From Acidobacteriota bacterium (lineage in GTDB: Bacteria; Acidobacteriota; Vicinamibacteria; Vicinamibacterales; CAVVIG01), in assembly GCA_003222555.1 (NCBI GenBank), contig QHWL01000326.1:1-11951 (forward strand): a stretch of 11,951 nt of DNA, written 5' to 3'. Below are positions 754 to 11,179 of this stretch, piece by piece. Position numbers and translations under genes: made by a program. The first letter of the stretch is position 1, and every line of letters begins with the position of its first letter. The notes beneath the pieces were generated by a model. It did no database searches and was not told where the DNA came from. It was given only the letters and a program-made list of their open reading frames with translations.

Positions 754-827
754 TCAACGCAGAGACCGCGGAGTCCGTAGAGAAGAAATGCTTAAGGATT
801 TCTCGGCGTGCTCTGCGAGCTCGGCGT
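754..827. repeat. Imperfect inverted repeat, GCAGAG/CCGAGAA type (copy 1)
   Basis: The left arm is built on AACGCAGAGACCGCGGAG; the right arm, read in reverse complement, begins GAACGCCGAGCTCGCAGAG. Arms of about 30 nt meet around 790-800. The right arm ends against the thyX stop codon at 830-828. The central part (AGAAGAAA, then a CTTAAG-like or CTAAG stretch, then TCTCGGCGTGCTCTGCG) is shared with the element at 6000-6079, so both belong to one dispersed family. It may also serve as a bidirectional termination structure between the convergent def and thyX. Confidence 0.75.
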
Positions 828-2459
828 TCAAACGTCGTATTTGTCCGCCTCTAAGGATTTCCGGCTCTTCTTCTCAATTGCCCGCTCCGACTGCAGGCGC
901 TCCAATTCCACTTCGGAGTGATCGGCAAACTGCATCGCAAGGGCGATCGCGCGATGGCCCGCCACCTCGGCGATCGCGCGGTGCATCATCTGGCAGACGC
1001 GCCGGTACGCCGGATGGCCCTGAGGCGCCGTCCGCAACTCGATGATGTGCATCGCCTCCCGCGCGTTCATCTCCATATAGAACCGCACTCGGTAGGCCAT
1101 GACGACGGCGTACGGGGCGACCTCGCCCATGCCGGCCGCCACAATCTTTTCGTAGAGATCCGCCGAGCGGTCCATCACTTCGCGCCAGTCGCCGAGCGCG
1201 CCGGCTTCCTCAATGGCTGCCGGCTCCGTGGAGCCGTGCCGCGTGCTGAGCGGCTGCCATTCGAGCGTGAGCAGTCGGTGGCGCTGGAGATCGCGGAACG
1301 CGCCGTAGTCGGCGAGCACGTCGAAACGATAACCGGTCCGCTCGAAGGCGCGGCCGGGCTTGTGCCGACGGTTGACGCGAGCTCCCACGTAAGCGCGGAG
1401 CAGCGCCGCGCGATCGTCGACGGAAAGGCGTCGAGCGATCGTCGTCAATTGGTCGTCGGGAAGATCCGAGGCGGAATACAGGGCCGCGGCGACGACTTTC
1501 GTTTCGCCGTCGGGATCGAAGTCGGTCAGTGTGACTTCGGGCCTCGGCTCGGCCTCGACGTCGGCGACCACTGTCTGTGTCAGGCTGTTGAACGCGCGCC
1601 GGGTCTCCGCGAGATACTCGACCCATCGGCCGCCGCGGTTTGGCTGATCGATCCGCGTAAGGAACGCCGGAATGACCTGCCGCAGCTCGGCGAGCATCAA
1701 GTGGGCGTGGCCGCGCACTTCTTCGAGCGGGTGCGCGAACATGCGCAGGAGCAGCGCTTCGAACGCCTGGCCCGTCCCGAACAGGCCGACATTCGAGGTC
1801 GTGGCCGCCGGCAGGAGGCCGCGGAGAGTGTCGAGCGCCTTGGCGCGAATGACCGAGCGATACACGGCGTCTGAGTCTTCCGGCGCTTTGGGGTGCTTCG
1901 CGCGGAAGTAGGCCTCCATTGCGGGGATCCACCGCGCGTAGGTACTGAAGGCGCGGTCGAGGGTGCCGACGAAGGCTTCCCGGAGCGTCGAACGCTCCAA
2001 TTCCGCTGGCACGTGATATTTCCAGCGGTCGTTCGGGCGGTCGGTGTACGGCACGTACCGCGTCGACTGCTCGAGGTAGGCCATCAGCCGCCCCCATTCG
2101 AGCACTTTGGTGAGCACGTTGGAAACGCCCTCGCACGCCAGGTGCGCGCCGCCGAGTTGTGCGACCGAGTCGTCGCCGTACTCGTTCAGCACGCGCGCGT
2201 ACAGCTTCTCGGCGCGGGCCGTCCCGACAGGCGCGCCTGCAACAGACGACCCCTCTTGCACCTCACCGATAAACTCGTCGAGAAACAGCCGGCGCACCGA
2301 TTTCGCGGAGCGTGAGTACCGCGCGAACAGCGCGCCTTTGACGGTCTCGGGGAGATTGGTCAGCGCGAAGACGGGCCGATCGGTGTTGGTGAAGTAGGGC
2401 CCGAGCGCGCGCGTTTCATCAGGCGTAAAGGTGTCGGGCGTCGTGATGGGCCCAGGCAT
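828..2459 (-). CDS. thyX: Flavin-dependent thymidylate synthase, long two-module form
   Basis: ThyX methylates dUMP to dTMP using FAD, NADPH and methylene-tetrahydrofolate. Classical ThyX has about 220-250 residues; this protein has 543 and looks like two ThyX modules in tandem. In module 1 the RHRX7S position reads WGR at 122-124, but EQSTRY follows, with Ser132 and Arg134 kept; its downstream motif (LPAATTSNVG, from about 216) lacks the usual Asn-Arg. Module 2 keeps RHR at 393-395, has a two-residue insertion before Ser405/Arg407, and carries a near-canonical NAREAMHIIELRT (465-477). Each module thus looks incomplete in a different way. Long ThyX-like proteins are, to my knowledge, a known subgroup, so activity is plausible but unproven. 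A TTG at 2513 would extend the frame by 18 residues; the ATG at 2459 is preferred, with GAAAGG about 12 nt upstream and a -10-like TAGAAT further up. The gene is divergent from the selenoprotein and convergent with def. Confidence 0.88.
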   Translation of the reverse strand: MPGPITTPDTFTPDETRALGPYFTNTDRPVFALTNLPETVKGALFARYSRSAKSVRRLFLDEFIGEVQEGSSVAGAPVGTARAEKLYARVLNEYGDDSVAQLGGAHLACEGVSNVLTKVLEWGRLMAYLEQSTRYVPYTDRPNDRWKYHVPAELERSTLREAFVGTLDRAFSTYARWIPAMEAYFRAKHPKAPEDSDAVYRSVIRAKALDTLRGLLPAATTSNVGLFGTGQAFEALLLRMFAHPLEEVRGHAHLMLAELRQVIPAFLTRIDQPNRGGRWVEYLAETRRAFNSLTQTVVADVEAEPRPEVTLTDFDPDGETKVVAAALYSASDLPDDQLTTIARRLSVDDRAALLRAYVGARVNRRHKPGRAFERTGYRFDVLADYGAFRDLQRHRLLTLEWQPLSTRHGSTEPAAIEEAGALGDWREVMDRSADLYEKIVAAGMGEVAPYAVVMAYRVRFYMEMNAREAMHIIELRTAPQGHPAYRRVCQMMHRAIAEVAGHRAIALAMQFADHSEVELERLQSERAIEKKSRKSLEADKYDV

Positions 2460-2516
2460 GTGCGGGGCGACCCTTTCAAAAGTTCGGAGGGCAGACCTTG
2501 TCGGGTCCGCCAAACT

Positions 2517-2522
2517 ATTCTA
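2517..2522 (-). promoter_or_regulatory. Putative -10 hexamer for thyX
   Basis: TAGAAT on the minus strand lies about 57 nt upstream of the preferred thyX ATG and only 3 nt from the alternative TTG at 2513. Transcription from it would start inside the first codons of the longer frame, which supports the ATG at 2459. No -35 match is seen. It sits back to back with the selenoprotein -10, eight bases away. Confidence 0.4.
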
Positions 2523-2530
2523 CGCGCGGG

Positions 2531-2536
2531 TACAAT
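2531..2536 (+). promoter_or_regulatory. Putative -10 hexamer for the selenoprotein gene
   Basis: TACAAT ends 6 nt before the ATG at 2543. The predicted start of transcription coincides with the ATG, so the mRNA is probably leaderless. No -35 match or Shine-Dalgarno is evident. Confidence 0.5.
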
Positions 2537-2542
2537 AGAGAG

Positions 2543-2749
2543 ATGGTTTACATCTTCGGCAAGGACACCTGACCGCATACACAAGCCGCCCGTGACGACT
2601 ATCAGCGGCGGCACGTCGCCTTCGAGTACTTCAACGTGAAGAAGACTCCGGCCGATCTCGCGCGGATGCTCGAGTACAGCGCGGGCCGGCGCGCCGTCCC
2701 CGTCATCGTCGAGGACGGGAAGGTCACCATCGGGTTCGGAGGCACCTGA
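2543..2749 (+). CDS. Glutaredoxin-like selenoprotein (UPHT active site, in-frame TGA)
   Basis: Reading the TGA at 2570-2572 as selenocysteine gives a 68-residue protein. It starts MVYIFGKDT, then U10-P-H-T-Q-A-A-R, and ends with VPVIVEDGKVTIGFGGT before a true TGA at 2747-2749. The layout is that of a glutaredoxin-fold redox protein: strand beta-1, an active site of type [U/C]-P-x-T at the start of helix 1, a cis-Pro strand (VPVIV, 52-56) and a glycine-rich end (GFGG). Sec stands where glutaredoxins have the nucleophilic Cys, and the resolving Cys is replaced by Thr13, so a monothiol-type mechanism is expected. I recall an NCBI family of small glutaredoxin-like (seleno)proteins called Uxx-star that this resembles; I cannot check it here. 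Frame-consistent homology-like sequence on both sides of the TGA, no usable start just after it, a SECIS-like hairpin 12 nt downstream and a -10 just before the ATG all argue against a pseudogene. The substrate is unknown. Confidence 0.85.
2585..2612 (+). promoter_or_regulatory. Putative bacterial SECIS hairpin
   Basis: GCCGCC (2585-2590) pairs perfectly with GGCGGC (2607-2612), all six pairs G-C. One further pair is possible with a single bulge: either G2592-C2606, or C2591-G2605. The latter leaves a 13-nt apical loop beginning GU, starting 19 nt after the UGA. Bacterial SECIS elements lie inside the coding region just after the UGA, about 16-37 nt from the apical loop, with a G among the first two loop bases; this one fits. 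It would recruit SelB with Sec-tRNA. No folding energy was computed. Confidence 0.7.
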
Positions 2750-2756
2750 GGGGTGT

Positions 2757-2838
2757 GACGAGGAACGGAGGTCACCGAAAGACGATGATGATCCTGCCGC
2801 GTCCCTCCGTAATGAACTCCGTGTCCTCGGTGGTAGAG
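2757..2838. repeat. Dispersed repeat, GGTCACCGAAAG / TCCGTGTCCTCGGTGGT type (copy A)
   Basis: This 82-nt unit runs from GACGAGG to CGGTGGTAGAG. A second copy with scattered differences lies at 2893-2965. Read on the minus strand it begins CTACCACCGAGGACACGGAG and ends in GGTGACCTCCGT, so the two ends are loosely complementary. Copy A has 8 extra bases (AACGGAGG) near its left end. It fills much of the space between the selenoprotein and the metallo-beta-lactamase gene; no gene is seen here. Confidence 0.8.
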
Positions 2839-2892
2839 CCGTTCTGCAGGCGTACTCCAGAGCGCTATCACGGAGGTCACGGAAAACCGCGC

Positions 2893-2965
2893 GACGAGGT
2901 CACCGAAAGCAAACGATGACCCTGCCGTGTCCTCCCGTATGTACTCCGTGTCTTCGGTGGTAGAG
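2893..2965. repeat. Dispersed repeat, GGTCACCGAAAG type (copy B)
   Basis: Second, 73-nt copy in the same orientation as the unit at 2757-2838, differing by several substitutions and small indels. A partial piece (ATCACGGAGGTCACGG, from 2867) sits between the two. The element ends 29 nt before the downstream ATG, so any promoter for that gene lies in the short remaining gap or within the repeat. Confidence 0.8.
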
Positions 2966-2994
2966 ATTTTCCGGACGATGTGCCGAAGGGTTAG

Positions 2995-3807
2995 ATGCTC
3001 CAGACCGCGTTCAATCCGATTTTGCTCGAAGCGTACAACCCGGGTTCCATGACGGGCCTGGGCAACAACACATACCTCGCCATCGCCTCCAACGGAGACG
3101 CAGTGCTGGTCGACGCCGGTGTCGGCGATCCGCGGCATCTGGCTGCGCTCGCCCGGGCGCTTGGCGATCACCACGCGCGACTCGACCGAGTTCTCGTCAC
3201 GCACGGCCACGCCGACCATGCGTCTGGCGCTGCGGCAATCGCATCGGCCCGGCCCGCGACGTTCGCGAAGCATCCGTGGCCCGAAGAGGACTTCCGCTAC
3301 GCCGTCGACTGGCAGCCTCTCGTCGACGGCGATGTCGTCGCGGTTGGCGACCAACCGCTGACGGTCCTGCACACACCCGGGCACTCGCCCGATCACCTCG
3401 TGTTCTGGCACGAGCCGAGCCGCACGGCGTTTACCGGCGATCTCGTCGTCGAAGGCAGCAGCGTCATGATTAGCTGGAGCCGCGGCGGCAACCTGGCGCA
3501 GTACCTGGCAGCCCTCGAGCGGCTTCGCGCGCTCGAGCCGAAAGTGCTCCTGCCGGCGCACGGCCCGAAAATCACCGATCCGGACCGACTGTTGATCGGA
3601 TATCTCGAGCACCGACGCCTGCGGGAGCGGCAGATCCTCGCCGCTCTGCAGAGGGGTCATGCTACCGTGCAGACGATCGCCGAATCCATCTATGATGGTC
3701 TCGAGCCGGCGCTCATGGCTGCGGCGCGCGAAACCGTGCGTGCGCATCTCGAGAAGTTGAAGGCCGAGGGGCGGGCGGTCGACGAACACGGCCGATGGCG
3801 AATGTGA
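2995..3807 (+). CDS. Metallo-beta-lactamase-fold hydrolase, LACTB2-like, with C-terminal winged helix
   Basis: A cytosolic di-metal hydrolase of 270 residues. The MBL motifs appear in order: THGHADH (69-75), HTPGH with ligand His130, TGD with bridging Asp149, and PAHG with His189. The segment from about 203 to the C-terminus is helical and charged, matching the winged-helix domain that follows the MBL fold in LACTB2-type proteins. Eukaryotic LACTB2 is an endoribonuclease; bacterial relatives are mostly uncharacterised, so the substrate (RNA, thioester or other) cannot be fixed from sequence. The start at 2995 has GAAGGG ending 4 nt upstream, a rather close Shine-Dalgarno. The last 13 nt overlap the start of the next gene, so translational coupling is likely and the two products may be co-regulated. 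Confidence 0.88.
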   Translation: MLQTAFNPILLEAYNPGSMTGLGNNTYLAIASNGDAVLVDAGVGDPRHLAALARALGDHHARLDRVLVTHGHADHASGAAAIASARPATFAKHPWPEEDFRYAVDWQPLVDGDVVAVGDQPLTVLHTPGHSPDHLVFWHEPSRTAFTGDLVVEGSSVMISWSRGGNLAQYLAALERLRALEPKVLLPAHGPKITDPDRLLIGYLEHRRLRERQILAALQRGHATVQTIAESIYDGLEPALMAAARETVRAHLEKLKAEGRAVDEHGRWRM

Positions 3808-5999: not shown

Positions 6000-6079
6000 T
6001 CTACCGCCGAGACCGCCGAGACCGCCGAGAAGAAAACGCTAAGAACTCTCGGCGTGCTCTGCGTGCTCTGCGGTAAAAC
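6000..6079. repeat. Imperfect inverted repeat, CCGCCGAGA type (copy 2)
   Basis: The left arm holds three tandem ACCGCCGAG units; the right arm, in reverse complement, reads ACCGCAGAGCACGCAGAGC and then ACGCCGAGAG, pairing imperfectly over about 33 nt with a centre near 6040. It starts 8 nt after the M20 peptidase stop. It belongs to the same family as the element at 754-827, sharing the TCTCGGCGTGCTCTGCG block. Confidence 0.8.
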
Positions 6080-6133: not shown

Positions 6134-6811
6134 GTGGCGAACGTGTCGAGGCTCGACACTCTCCTGAACGCGCTGCAGAAGTTTTACGGCGCGCTGCCGG
6201 CGCCGCCGCGCGATCCATTCACGTTGTTCGTATGGGAGGTCCTGTCGGTCCATTCGACGCCGAGAAAGCGGGACGCCGCGCTCGTGGCGTTGAAGCGGAT
6301 TCGCGCGCTCACGCCGGATGCGATGTGGCGGGCAGCGCAGGCCAAGCTCGAAGCGAGCGTTGCCCTCGCCGGCCCGTACACCGAGCAGCGGTTGCGCGCG
6401 CTGAGGACCGGCGTCGATTTGTTCCGCCGCTCGCCGGAGTTGCCGGCCCTCATCAAAGGGCCTTTGCCGGCTGCGCGCCGGGCGTTGAAGCCGTTTCCGC
6501 AGCTGGGAGACGCCGGCGCGCATCGAATGCTCCTCTTTGCAGCCGATCATCCGATTCTGCCGGTCGACGCCCGTGTCAACCGGGTCGGCTTGCGGCTCGG
6601 GTACGGCGAGCGGAAGACGGCGCGGACCGTGCAGACCGGGCTGGCCCGCGAGTTGCCGCCCGCCGTCGACGCGTTCCGGCGGGCGTTCCAGTATCTGTCG
6701 CATCACGGAGCCGCTACATGCACGGAAAGCGACCCCCACTGCCATATCTGTCCGCTGGTGTCGGAGTGTCCTGAAGGCAAGAAGCGGACAGGTGGGAGAC
6801 CGGGAGATTGA
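6134..6811 (+). CDS. Endonuclease III-like HhH-GPD DNA glycosylase without the catalytic Lys
   Basis: A 225-residue protein with the fold of base-excision-repair glycosylases that remove damaged bases. The C-terminal [4Fe-4S] ligands fit the Nth/MutY pattern exactly: C196-X6-C203-X2-C206-X5-C212. The catalytic Asp is kept as Asp145 in VDARVNRV. The helix-hairpin-helix, normally LPGVGRKTA in Nth, reads FPQLGDAGA (121-129), so the lyase Lys is Ala127, and the minor-groove Gln region (SAQTT in Nth) reads SVHST. I infer a monofunctional glycosylase or an Nth relative with altered chemistry, rather than a true Nth with AP-lyase activity. It is probably transcribed with, or just after, the M20 peptidase. 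Its last two codons and stop lie inside an inverted repeat (6805-6913). Confidence 0.82.
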   Translation: MANVSRLDTLLNALQKFYGALPAPPRDPFTLFVWEVLSVHSTPRKRDAALVALKRIRALTPDAMWRAAQAKLEASVALAGPYTEQRLRALRTGVDLFRRSPELPALIKGPLPAARRALKPFPQLGDAGAHRMLLFAADHPILPVDARVNRVGLRLGYGERKTARTVQTGLARELPPAVDAFRRAFQYLSHHGAATCTESDPHCHICPLVSECPEGKKRTGGRPGD

Positions 6812-6913
6812 AGATTGTCGATTGCAGATTGAAGATTTGGATTGCAGATTTCCGTTAGCTCGCCGAATCCCCAATCAGCCAATCAATCTTCAATCTGAAA
6901 TCTTCAATCTCAC
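6805..6913. repeat. Inverted repeat of GATTGAAGATT units
   Basis: The left arm (about 6805-6853) is made of tandem AGATTGAAGATT and GATTGCAGATT units; the right arm (about 6868-6913), in reverse complement, begins GAGATTGAAGATTTCAG and repeats the same units. The outermost 13 nt are perfect inverted copies (GAGATTGAAGATT). The element is A/T-rich against GC-rich surroundings and fills the space between two convergent genes, so it may help termination from both sides. Its left edge supplies the stop of the glycosylase-like gene. Confidence 0.8.
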
Positions 6914-6917
6914 CTTC

Positions 6918-7823
6918 TCAATTGAGCGAAGCGACCCTCCTGCGAAGCATTTTGACGTGCTCCCAGATTTGAGCCAGCTCCTCACGCTCTTCCTCGTCGA
7001 GCGGGCTCGACGATGAGAGCTGAAGGTAGGTCTGGAGGTCGCGCAGCGCGGCGGAGAAGTCCTTCAAGTGATAAGCGAGCAGTCCCCGATCGCGCAGCTC
7101 GTTGTTGGCCGACGGGTCGACGGCGAGAAGCAGTTCGGTGACATCGCGCGCCTGCGGAAACGAGTGCATGCGCACGTACACGCGTTTCAGATTGAGCAGC
7201 ATGCGCGCGAGAATCTGCGGCTTGGTGGCGTGGCCGAGCAGATGCGACTCGAACAGCGCCTCATCTCCCGCGTGACGGCGAAGCAGTTCGCGGCAGGCGT
7301 CCTCCGACAGGAGTGCGCCGCCGTGGAACGCATCGATGATCAGATCTTCGGAGTAGGGTGTGCCCCGCCGGGCGGGACAGCGCAGCAGGAAATGTCCGGG
7401 AAAGTTGATGCCCTCCACGTACAGCTCGGCGCGGCGGGCGACTTCCATGTACAGCATCGCGAGCGTAATCGGAATACCGGTCCGCCGATCGAGCACCTCG
7501 TTCAGAAAGCTGTTCCGCGGGTCCTCGTAGTGGACGTCGTTGCCGACAAAGTGCAGCTCCTTGAACAGGTACTCGTTGAGCGCCATCACGCGCGCATACC
7601 GCTCGGGATCGACGCGTGGCGGCGCTTCTCCAGGCACGACCGCCGCGGCGGCCACCCGGACGAGCGCCTCGCGGCCGATGGCGTCCAGCTGATCGAGATA
7701 GGGGCCGGCGTCGAGCCTGGGGCACTCGACGCGCGCGATCATCAGCGCCGCGATTGCCAAGTCGGGGTCGGGGCTCAGTGCGGCATGCGTGAAGCTGCGG
7801 ACGAGCTGTGACCTCATCACCAT
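6918..7823 (-). CDS. SirB1-like protein (transglutaminase-like core with TPR tail)
   Basis: A soluble protein of about 301 residues. A conserved core (DPRNSFLNEVLDRRTGIPIT, about 101-120, then MLYMEVARR and VEGINFPGHFLLR, about 123-148) is the signature of the SirB1/YchA family (transglutaminase-like core 2). A C-terminal part with TPR-like helices (LKRVYVRMHSFPQARDVTEL, about 212-231, and a second repeat) follows. The true biochemical role of the family is unsettled. Three in-frame starts lie together: ATG 7823, GTG 7820 and ATG 7817. None has a Shine-Dalgarno, and a TATTCT -10 at 7833-7828 would start transcription right there, so leaderless translation is likely and the exact start is uncertain by two codons. 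Confidence 0.85.
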   Translation of the reverse strand: MVMRSQLVRSFTHAALSPDPDLAIAALMIARVECPRLDAGPYLDQLDAIGREALVRVAAAAVVPGEAPPRVDPERYARVMALNEYLFKELHFVGNDVHYEDPRNSFLNEVLDRRTGIPITLAMLYMEVARRAELYVEGINFPGHFLLRCPARRGTPYSEDLIIDAFHGGALLSEDACRELLRRHAGDEALFESHLLGHATKPQILARMLLNLKRVYVRMHSFPQARDVTELLLAVDPSANNELRDRGLLAYHLKDFSAALRDLQTYLQLSSSSPLDEEEREELAQIWEHVKMLRRRVASLN

Positions 7824-8541: not shown

Positions 8542-8544
8542 GTC

Positions 8545-8647
8545 TGAAGTCAGAAGGAAAAAGGCAAAAGGCAAAAGTTGCAAGGCAGAAGGATCACTTT
8601 TTCCTTTTAACTTTTGACTTCTTCCTTTTTCACTTCTTCCTTCTTTA
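8545..8647. repeat. Inverted repeat of AAAGGCAAAAG / CTTTTTCCTTTT units
   Basis: The purine-rich left arm (AGAAGGAAAAAGGCAAAAGG and so on, 8550-8590) faces a pyrimidine-rich right arm (CTTTTTCCTTTTAACTTTTG and so on, from 8598). Short direct units (AAAAGGC; CTTCTTCCTTTTT/CTTCTTCC) recur within each arm. It fills the gap upstream of the HAD gene and runs into the 3' end of the DUF1684 gene, where it encodes the Lys/Glu-rich tail. Confidence 0.8.
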
Positions 8648-9329
8648 AACGCTCACCCGCCCGGATTGGAATCTTGAGACGGTTTTCCGCCGGTGGATAG
8701 GGGCAATCCCAGGTCGGGTTGTAGTAGCAGGTTGGATGATACGCACGGTTGAAGTCGATTACGTAGATGCCGGTCGCGTTCCGATCGAGATCGAGATAGC
8801 GGCCGCCCGGGTACGTTTCGGTGCCCGTTGTGAGGTCGGTGAACGGCACGAACAGATGATCGAGATTGCGCTCACCGACATCGACGAAGGCAGTGAGCTT
8901 CAGTGGCTGTCCTTTCACCGCGAACTCGAGAGTACCCACCCGTCGCATCTCGCGCAGCGCACCGGTCGAGGTCGGCATTTGGAGCGTGGCCCGATCGCTC
9001 GACGGCCTGAGGTTCGCCGGCACGCTGTAAGACGGATCGATGGGAAAGTAGGCGAGCGGCAAGAGCTCCGCGCGCCGGTTCTCGGGAACGGGCGAGTCGG
9101 ATGCGTACCTGAACTCGGCGTCCTTCCTGGCGCGGGCAGCCGCGATCGCTGGGACATAACTTTTCGGGTCGTCAGGCGGTCGATTGCTGCAGGCCGCGGT
9201 CACCGCCAGGACGGCGAGAAGGGCGGGTAGGGCGGGAAAGGCGGGTAGGGCGGGTAGGGCAGGTCGGTCAGGTAGGCCTGGTAGGTCCGGTAGGGCAGAC
9301 AGGCCGGGTAGGTCGCGAAGAGCGCGCAC
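8607..9329 (-). CDS. DUF1684 lipoprotein with a repeat-encoded signal peptide
   Basis: 240 residues. The C-terminal half (about 130-227) carries the conserved DUF1684 features: FTDLTTGTETYPGGRYLDL (163-181), IDFNRAYHP (191-199), CYYNP, CPYPPAENRL (209-218) and a final PIRAGE. The family function is unknown to me. The N-terminus is a long Leu-Pro-Ala signal peptide ending VTAAC, so Cys47 is a probable lipidation site; Thr at -3 makes the lipobox weak. Residues 7-37 are encoded by a 9-bp minisatellite (CTACCCGCC = Leu-Pro-Ala). The last ten residues (KEEVKKEEVK region) come from another repeat at 8545-8647 and lie past the usual end of the domain. The GTG at 9329 is the only start that provides a signal peptide; a TAAGAT hexamer sits 6 nt before it. 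Confidence 0.85.
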   Translation of the reverse strand: MRALRDLPGLSALPDLPGLPDRPALPALPAFPALPALLAVLAVTAACSNRPPDDPKSYVPAIAAARARKDAEFRYASDSPVPENRRAELLPLAYFPIDPSYSVPANLRPSSDRATLQMPTSTGALREMRRVGTLEFAVKGQPLKLTAFVDVGERNLDHLFVPFTDLTTGTETYPGGRYLDLDRNATGIYVIDFNRAYHPTCYYNPTWDCPYPPAENRLKIPIRAGERLKKEEVKKEEVKS

Positions 9330-9366
9330 GGCTCTATCTTACCTGCCCCACCCGCCCCACCTGCCC
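9218..9366. repeat. GGGCGGGTA minisatellite with an opposed C-rich arm; G-quadruplex potential
   Basis: The plus strand from 9221 carries repeats of GGCGGGTAG and GGTAGG variants to about 9315; 9346-9366 carries CCCCACCCGCCCCACC, roughly their inverse complement. Both strands meet a quadruplex pattern: GGG-C-GGG-TA-GGG-C-GGG at 9221-9236 on plus, and GGGG-C-GGG-T-GGGG preceded by a further GGG on minus at 9366-9346. The two arms flank the GTG start and promoter of the DUF1684 gene, so structure here could affect its expression. Confidence 0.8.
9336..9341 (-). promoter_or_regulatory. Putative -10 hexamer for the DUF1684 gene
   Basis: TAAGAT on the minus strand lies 6 nt before the GTG at 9329, the same spacing as at the selenoprotein gene. 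It is placed between the C-rich arm and the coding minisatellite. No Shine-Dalgarno is seen. Confidence 0.4.
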
Positions 9367-9393
9367 ATCTGACTCCCCCGCCTGAACGACCGC

Positions 9394-11179
<1,786 letters not shown>

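What the first reader, a model, noticed from the sequence alone, without database searches (positions are those of the whole stretch)
2543..2749. Hidden selenoprotein: glutaredoxin-like gene with Sec at an in-frame TGA
The frame ATG 2543 to TGA 2749 contains one internal TGA (2570-2572) exactly where glutaredoxins have the nucleophilic Cys. Sequence before it (VYIFGKDT) and after it (PHTQAAR, VPVIVEDGK, GFGG) belongs to one redox protein. The resolving Cys is Thr, so the chemistry would rest on Sec alone. Standard gene callers would miss the gene or call it broken. Selenoproteins of this small glutaredoxin-like kind are, as I recall, known as a family, but the role and electron donor are not established to my knowledge.
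Basis: partly seen in the sequence, partly recalled or inferred. Interest (0 to 1): 0.85.

Follow-up and report, generated by a model that had tools for sequence, protein, structure and literature searches.

The report
Two-selenocysteine mini-glutaredoxin (UXX-star family 1)

Summary
Confirmed and corrected. TGA 2570-2572 lies at the glutaredoxin nucleophile; the read-through product matches NCBIfam NF041114 'UXX-star selenoprotein family 1' at 120 bits (cut-off 72). The genome has selA, selD, tRNA-Sec and selB in two contig pieces. Position 10 is TGA in 42 of these 50 and Cys in 8, so the C-terminal codon is the more constant one. A 2026 review already lists the family with two Sec (PMC13188914 Table 1): a new member of a known kind. 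Possibly new: 48 of 50 relatives carry a bacterial-SECIS-like hairpin in the 3' UTR; the window has none meeting the same criteria, and copies of a dispersed repeat begin at its stop codon. Proposed chemistry (inferred, not tested): U10 and U69 form a diselenide redox pair.

The parts
2543..2758 (+). UXX-star family 1 gene: 71 codons with two UGA, then stop TGA 2756-2758 (MVYIFGKDTUPHT...GFGGTUGV)
   Evidence: alignment with relatives
2570..2572 (+). UGA codon for Sec10 (glutaredoxin nucleophile, U-P-H-T motif)
   Evidence: TGA in 42 of 50 distinct relatives, Cys in 8
2585..2612 (+). SECIS1 candidate hairpin inside the coding region; apical loop CGACUA 23 nt after UGA10
   Evidence: 40-nt piece z -2.33 (5 of 200 shuffles as stable), longer 56-nt piece only z -0.60 (54 of 200). 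The Arg17 codon CGT (2591-2593) looks RNA-constrained: CGT in 34 of 41 U10 loci, 0 of 8 Cys10 loci
   Evidence: TGA in 50 of 50 distinct relatives, each time followed by two codons and a stop
2756..2758 (+). stop codon TGA after the second UGA
   Evidence: a stop at the same place in 50 of 50 relatives
2758..2846 (+). copy A (left end missing) of a dispersed intergenic repeat, lying where relatives carry the SECIS2 hairpin; start lies between 2758 and 2765 depending on the copy compared
   Evidence: no hairpin meeting the bSECIS criteria here
2861..2970 (+). copy B (about 110 nt) of the same dispersed repeat

Best explanation
A gene of UXX-star selenoprotein family 1: a 71-residue glutaredoxin-fold protein that ends after the fourth strand and carries Sec at residue 10 (start of helix 1) and, in the family, a second Sec at residue 69 in the C-terminal tail G-G-T-U-x-x-stop. 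Shown by sequence: family membership, conservation of both UGA positions, Sec machinery in the genome, and RNA-level constraints after each UGA in relatives. Inferred: U10 attacks the substrate, and U69, at the place of the glutaredoxin GG-x-D site beside the active site (recalled), resolves it as a diselenide (selenenylsulfide in the Cys10 forms). The pair would be re-reduced by the thioredoxin system or another thiol rather than by glutathione. In this genome copies of a repeat sit where relatives have the 3'-UTR SECIS of UGA69, so Sec69 insertion is doubtful here (I put it near even), while Sec10 is very likely. The confidence below is for the gene's identity and Sec10; the diselenide step alone I would put near 0.5.
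For: NF041114 120.2 bits over 1-70/70, cut-off 72. selA 506.9 bits, selD 353.7 bits with one TGA inside, tRNA-Sec 60.4 bits, gathering score 47, selB N-part 290.5 bits and C-part 38.2 bits on different contigs. selA is found in 40 of the 44 phylum genomes with the family over its cut-off, against 212 of the other 352, Fisher p 2e-5. UGA69 in 50 of 50 relatives, followed mostly by Gly-Val, with all four third bases in use, then a stop; the 13 further full-length matches over the cut-off that I did not fetch are also reported with 2 TGA each. Hairpin meeting the published bSECIS criteria after UGA69 in 48 of 50 relatives, none in the window. Contiguous stem of 6 or more pairs in 37 of 48 relatives against 7 of 48 in a downstream control. 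Arg17 CGT in 34 of 41 U10 loci against 0 of 8 Cys10 loci, and in 17 of 190 later Arg codons of the same genes. AlphaFold model, Cys in place of Sec, pLDDT 97.1, order E-H-E-H-E-E. No gshB match over the cut-off in 60 of 60 genomes; trxB 401.1 bits, cut-off 343.45.
Against: The bSECIS criteria at codon 10 discriminate poorly: met in 36 of 41 U10 loci but also in 4 of 8 Cys10 loci. By local hairpin energy the window (-5.6 kcal/mol) is third weakest of 49, behind L020 (-4.7) and L060 (-5.2), so it is not unique on that measure. 4 of the 44 family-positive genomes show no selA at E <= 1e-60. The Fisher tests ignore relatedness. This genome has a sub-cut-off gshB match (43.4 bits, cut-off 299.05). 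The genome is a draft (82% complete, 784 contigs).
Confidence: 0.85

Rival explanations
1. In this strain the protein has one Sec only and ends at residue 68, because UGA69 has lost its SECIS.
For: No hairpin meeting the bSECIS criteria after UGA69 in the window, against 48 of 50 relatives, including the same-genus L049/L095. Its 48-nt stretch after UGA69 folds at -6.3 kcal/mol, the weakest of 49 (others -10.2 to -25.7). Copies of a dispersed repeat start at the stop codon.
Against: The Gly-Val-stop tail is intact. A weak 3-pair hairpin with loop AGGUCA sits at UGA+20, within the range of loop positions seen in relatives. SelB might tolerate it or use another structure of the repeat.
Confidence: 0.45
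2. The two selenolates bind a metal or metalloid (mercury, arsenic), and the protein is a carrier or detoxifier, not an oxidoreductase.
For: The 2026 review suggests that Sec of the UXX-star family may be a metal ligand or bind unknown substrates (PMC13188914, passage read). No constant partner gene was seen in the distant lineages.
Against: Apart from the UXX-star models, the best profile matches are glutaredoxin and glutaredoxin-like families. No mercury- or arsenic-related Pfam family appeared among the 20 neighbour proteins scanned; closer neighbours were not all scanned.
Confidence: 0.2
3. TGA 2570-2572 is a nonsense mutation, an assembly error or a sign of a pseudogene.
For: Draft assembly; an apparent frameshift lies elsewhere in the window (acyl-CoA dehydrogenase, about 9990-10107).
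Against: TGA at this codon in 42 of 50 relatives, from several phyla; third-position bias over the whole frame; sel genes present.
Confidence: 0.01
4. The organism reads TGA as an ordinary amino acid throughout.
For: 4 of 120 listed database homologs show Trp at residue 10, presumably TGA read by another code.
Against: Several neighbouring genes end in TGA at their natural ends; tRNA-Sec, selA and selD are present; relatives have TGA or Cys, not Trp, at this codon.
Confidence: 0.01

Closest known systems
UXX-star selenoprotein family 1 (NCBIfam NF041114; 'Distant Grx-like protein 1' in PMC13188914 Table 1)
   Same: Full-length profile match, UxxT motif, two Sec positions, U-x-x-stop tail.
   Different: The window lacks the 3'-UTR hairpin that 48 of 50 relatives read here have after UGA69.
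UXX-star families 2 and 3 (NF041211, NF047338)
   Same: Glutaredoxin-like; tail of the same kind, judging by the name.
   Different: 55.4 and 51.8 bits, below their cut-offs of 100 and 97.
Classical glutaredoxin (TIGR02181; PDB 1fov, 3grx) and Sec-glutaredoxin with UxxC
   Same: Fold and active-site position; glutaredoxins are the only solved relatives by sequence at E 1e-5.
   Different: UxxT rather than CxxC or UxxC; no C-terminal helix in the model; C-terminal Sec tail; 34.6 bits against a cut-off of 90.
Thioredoxin reductase with C-terminal Gly-Cys-Sec-Gly (recalled, no call)
   Same: A C-terminal Sec serving a second redox centre.
   Different: Unrelated fold and size; here the partner would be another Sec. 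Analogy only.

Membership tests
UXX-star selenoprotein family 1 (NF041114) | Score above the curated cut-off over the full profile | tested here: met
   120.2 bits, cut-off 72, profile 1-70/70
UXX-star selenoprotein family 1 (NF041114) | Sec (UGA) or Cys at the glutaredoxin nucleophile | tested here: met
   TGA 2570-2572; relatives TGA 42 of 50, Cys 8 of 50
UXX-star selenoprotein family 1 (NF041114) | UGA two codons before the stop | tested here: met
   TGA 2747-2749, GGG, GTG, TGA 2756-2758
UXX-star selenoprotein family 1 (NF041114) | SECIS-like hairpin after the C-terminal UGA (common feature found here in relatives; not a stated family criterion in what I read) | tested here: not met
   bSECIS criteria met in 48 of 50 relatives, not in the window
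Selenoprotein | Sec synthesis and insertion genes in the genome | tested here: met
   selA, selD, tRNA-Sec over their cut-offs; selB as two pieces, only the N-part over the cut-off
Selenoprotein | Selenium in the expressed protein | not testable with these tools
   needs 75Se labelling or mass spectrometry
Classical glutaredoxin | Glutathione as electron donor | tested here: inconclusive
   gshB (TIGR01380): no match over the cut-off in 60 genomes of the order, 2 of 60 with sub-cut-off matches; other routes to glutathione not tested
Classical glutaredoxin | CxxC/CxxS (or UxxC) motif and full fold with C-terminal helix | tested here: not met
   U-P-H-T; in the model the chain ends after strand 60-63 plus a short tail

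The most novel reading that the evidence does not exclude
A dispersed intergenic repeat has overwritten the 3'-UTR SECIS of the second Sec codon, turning a two-selenocysteine redox protein into a one-selenocysteine protein by changing only untranslated RNA. This would be a natural knock-out of one Sec with the coding sequence left intact.
Probability: 0.4. Interest if true: 0.55.

Novelty: new member of a known kind. Interest (0 to 1): 0.38.

Why it matters
Gene prediction cuts or misses this gene: none of the 120 listed database homologs (of 460) carries anything after position 69. The comparison suggests that the C-terminal Sec, not the nucleophile, is the more fixed part of the family, and that a bacterial SECIS can lie in the 3' UTR when Sec sits next to the stop. 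The pair formed by the window and its same-genus relative L049 offers a direct test of what the second Sec does.

Tried and rejected
Rejected: nonsense mutation or assembly error, and general TGA reassignment (see rivals). Rfam gave no match for the window at gathering level nor for 2500-3000 up to E 1. The MAFFT alignment of the SECIS2 stretch left many hairpins out of register, so I used per-locus hairpin scans and built no covariance model. Neighbours: a ThyX-like gene near 17 of 49 loci, the metallo-hydrolase near 13, the M20 peptidase near 10 (one of the 49 is a duplicate, and most flanks were only 1.5 kb, so these are lower bounds). The block looks like synteny; the 20 neighbour proteins scanned, chiefly from distant lineages, show no constant partner. 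L061 (filed as Woeseiaceae) shares the block and may be a mis-binned contig; not followed.

Limits: matches below the cut-off were not examined at residue 69. Of 45 matches over the cut-off, 30 were fetched. The geometry of U10 and U69 in the model was not measured (no coordinates), and no fold search ran.

Papers: PMC13188914 passages only; PMC2398784 and PMC12013277 passages only; other papers only as search listings. Haft and Tolstoy 2025 and Haft and Gwadz 2023 are not held and are known to me only from the review's reference list. I do not claim that the 3'-UTR SECIS of this family is absent from print.

Full report
Observation. The frame ATG 2543 runs through TGA 2570-2572, at the place of the glutaredoxin nucleophile, to TGA 2747-2749. 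The read-through product scores 116.1 bits against NCBIfam NF041114 (cut-off 72) and 38.8 bits against Pfam Glutaredoxin. Taken two codons further, to TGA 2756-2758, it covers the whole profile (1-70/70) at 120.2 bits.

Relatives. In the phylum sample 44 of 396 genomes have a match over the cut-off, 45 matches in all. I fetched 30 of these (the window's own among them); of the 15 not fetched, 13 are reported with two TGA, and 2 are pieces of one genome with one TGA each. A second search gave 20 loci from named genomes, of which L059 duplicates L030. A third, in the window's family, gave 9 more, of which 7 repeat earlier ones by sequence. That leaves 50 distinct relatives. Codon 69 is TGA in 50 of 50, followed by two codons (mostly Gly-Val, with all four third bases in use) and a stop in 50 of 50; codon 10 is TGA in 42 and Cys in 8. 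Among the 120 listed of 460 database homologs, 115 have Cys at residue 10, 4 Trp (probably TGA read by another code) and 1 Ser; 116 end just before position 69 and the 4 Trp ones end at it, as gene callers would cut them. Records with names include MAGs filed as Acidobacteria, Tectomicrobia, NC10, Nitrospirae, Thermodesulfovibrionia, Zixiibacteriota, Woeseiaceae and Proteobacteria. L030, in the window's own family, has the contig length and protein sequence of an Acidobacteria MAG contig, L059, so the window is most likely from Acidobacteriota.

Sec machinery. The assembly (82% complete) holds selA, selD with an in-frame TGA of its own, tRNA-Sec, and selB as two pieces on two contigs. selA at E <= 1e-60 occurs in 252 of 396 phylum genomes and in 40 of the 44 with this family; G104, G226, G276 and G341 are the exceptions (Fisher p 2e-5, relatedness not corrected). 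The same assembly has three more glutaredoxin- or ArsC-like genes with TGA at the nucleophile (the ArsC label is by eye).

RNA signals. After UGA10 the window folds a hairpin at 2585-2612: z -2.33 for the 40-nt piece but only -0.60 for a 56-nt piece. Better evidence is the Arg17 codon lying within it: CGT in 34 of 41 loci with UGA10 (window included), 0 of 8 with Cys10, and only 17 of 190 at later Arg codons of the same genes. The bSECIS criteria quoted in PMC13188914 are a loop of 3-9 nt with G in its first two positions, a stem of 4-16 pairs and a spacing of 16-37 nt. After codon 10 they discriminate poorly (36 of 41 U10 loci, 4 of 8 Cys10 loci). After UGA69 they are met in 46 of 48 relatives (misses L020 and L063; L060 only at spacing 36) and in the 2 later ones. 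Stems of 6 pairs or more occur in 37 of 48, against 7 of 48 in a downstream control; single-locus shuffles are often not significant. Stem sequences differ widely, while many loops are GGUC, GUC, GUU, GGU or GGC. This hairpin lies after the stop codon, in the 3' UTR.

The window differs. It has no hairpin meeting these criteria; its 48-nt stretch after UGA69 folds at -6.3 kcal/mol, the weakest of 49. By best local hairpin, though, it is third weakest, behind L020 and L060. Starting at the stop codon (2758-2765, depending on the copy compared) it carries a copy of a dispersed repeat lacking its left end, to about 2845, and a longer copy at 2861-2970; 16 further matching places, several of them short, are listed in the genome. 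The same-genus relative L049/L095 (87% identical) has the hairpin, so the change is probably recent. A 3-pair hairpin with loop AGGUCA remains at UGA+20. Whether UGA69 is still read as Sec here is open.

Fold and mechanism. AlphaFold2, run with Cys in place of Sec, gives pLDDT 97.1 with strand, helix, strand, helix, strand, strand and no final helix. Solved relatives by sequence are glutaredoxins (1fov, 3grx, 7c12 and others). The residue-69 tail follows the GG after the last strand, where glutaredoxins (recalled) have the GG-x-D glutathione site facing the active Cys. I infer a U10-U69 diselenide pair; this is not measured. gshB has no match over the cut-off in 60 genomes of the order, with sub-cut-off matches in 2 (this genome 43.4 bits, cut-off 299.05); trxB is present. 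Glutathione is therefore an unlikely donor, though not excluded.

Known or new. PMC13188914 Table 1 (passages read) lists 'Distant Grx-like protein 1 (UXX-star selenoprotein family 1)', NF041114, UxxT, two Sec. This is a new member of a known family. The 3'-UTR SECIS pattern and its apparent loss here are the parts that may be new; two papers on the wider group were not held, so I cannot say whether they are in print.

Noticed in passing
G000:C586:5497-5670, C622:7659-7829, C59:3257-3382: Three more glutaredoxin- or ArsC-like genes of the same genome with TGA at the nucleophile, UxxC type by eye.
   Followed up: partly
G000:C679:2252-3178: selD with an in-frame TGA in the stretch CAGUASK: probably a Sec-containing selenophosphate synthetase.
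   Followed up: partly
window 758-817, 6002-6075, 6796-6919, 8542-8644, 9217-9370: The five other intergenic stretches checked carry imperfect inverted repeats of differing sequence.
   Followed up: partly
window about 9990-10107: The acyl-CoA dehydrogenase reading frame on the minus strand seems to shift frame here; real or an assembly error (the name is by eye).
   Followed up: no
window 828-2513: 561-residue protein with Thy1 (ThyX) matches in two stretches, divergent from the selenoprotein gene; relatives lie near it in 17 of 49 loci.
   Followed up: partly
L061: A contig filed under Woeseiaceae carries the same gene block as the acidobacterial loci; possibly mis-binned.
   Followed up: no
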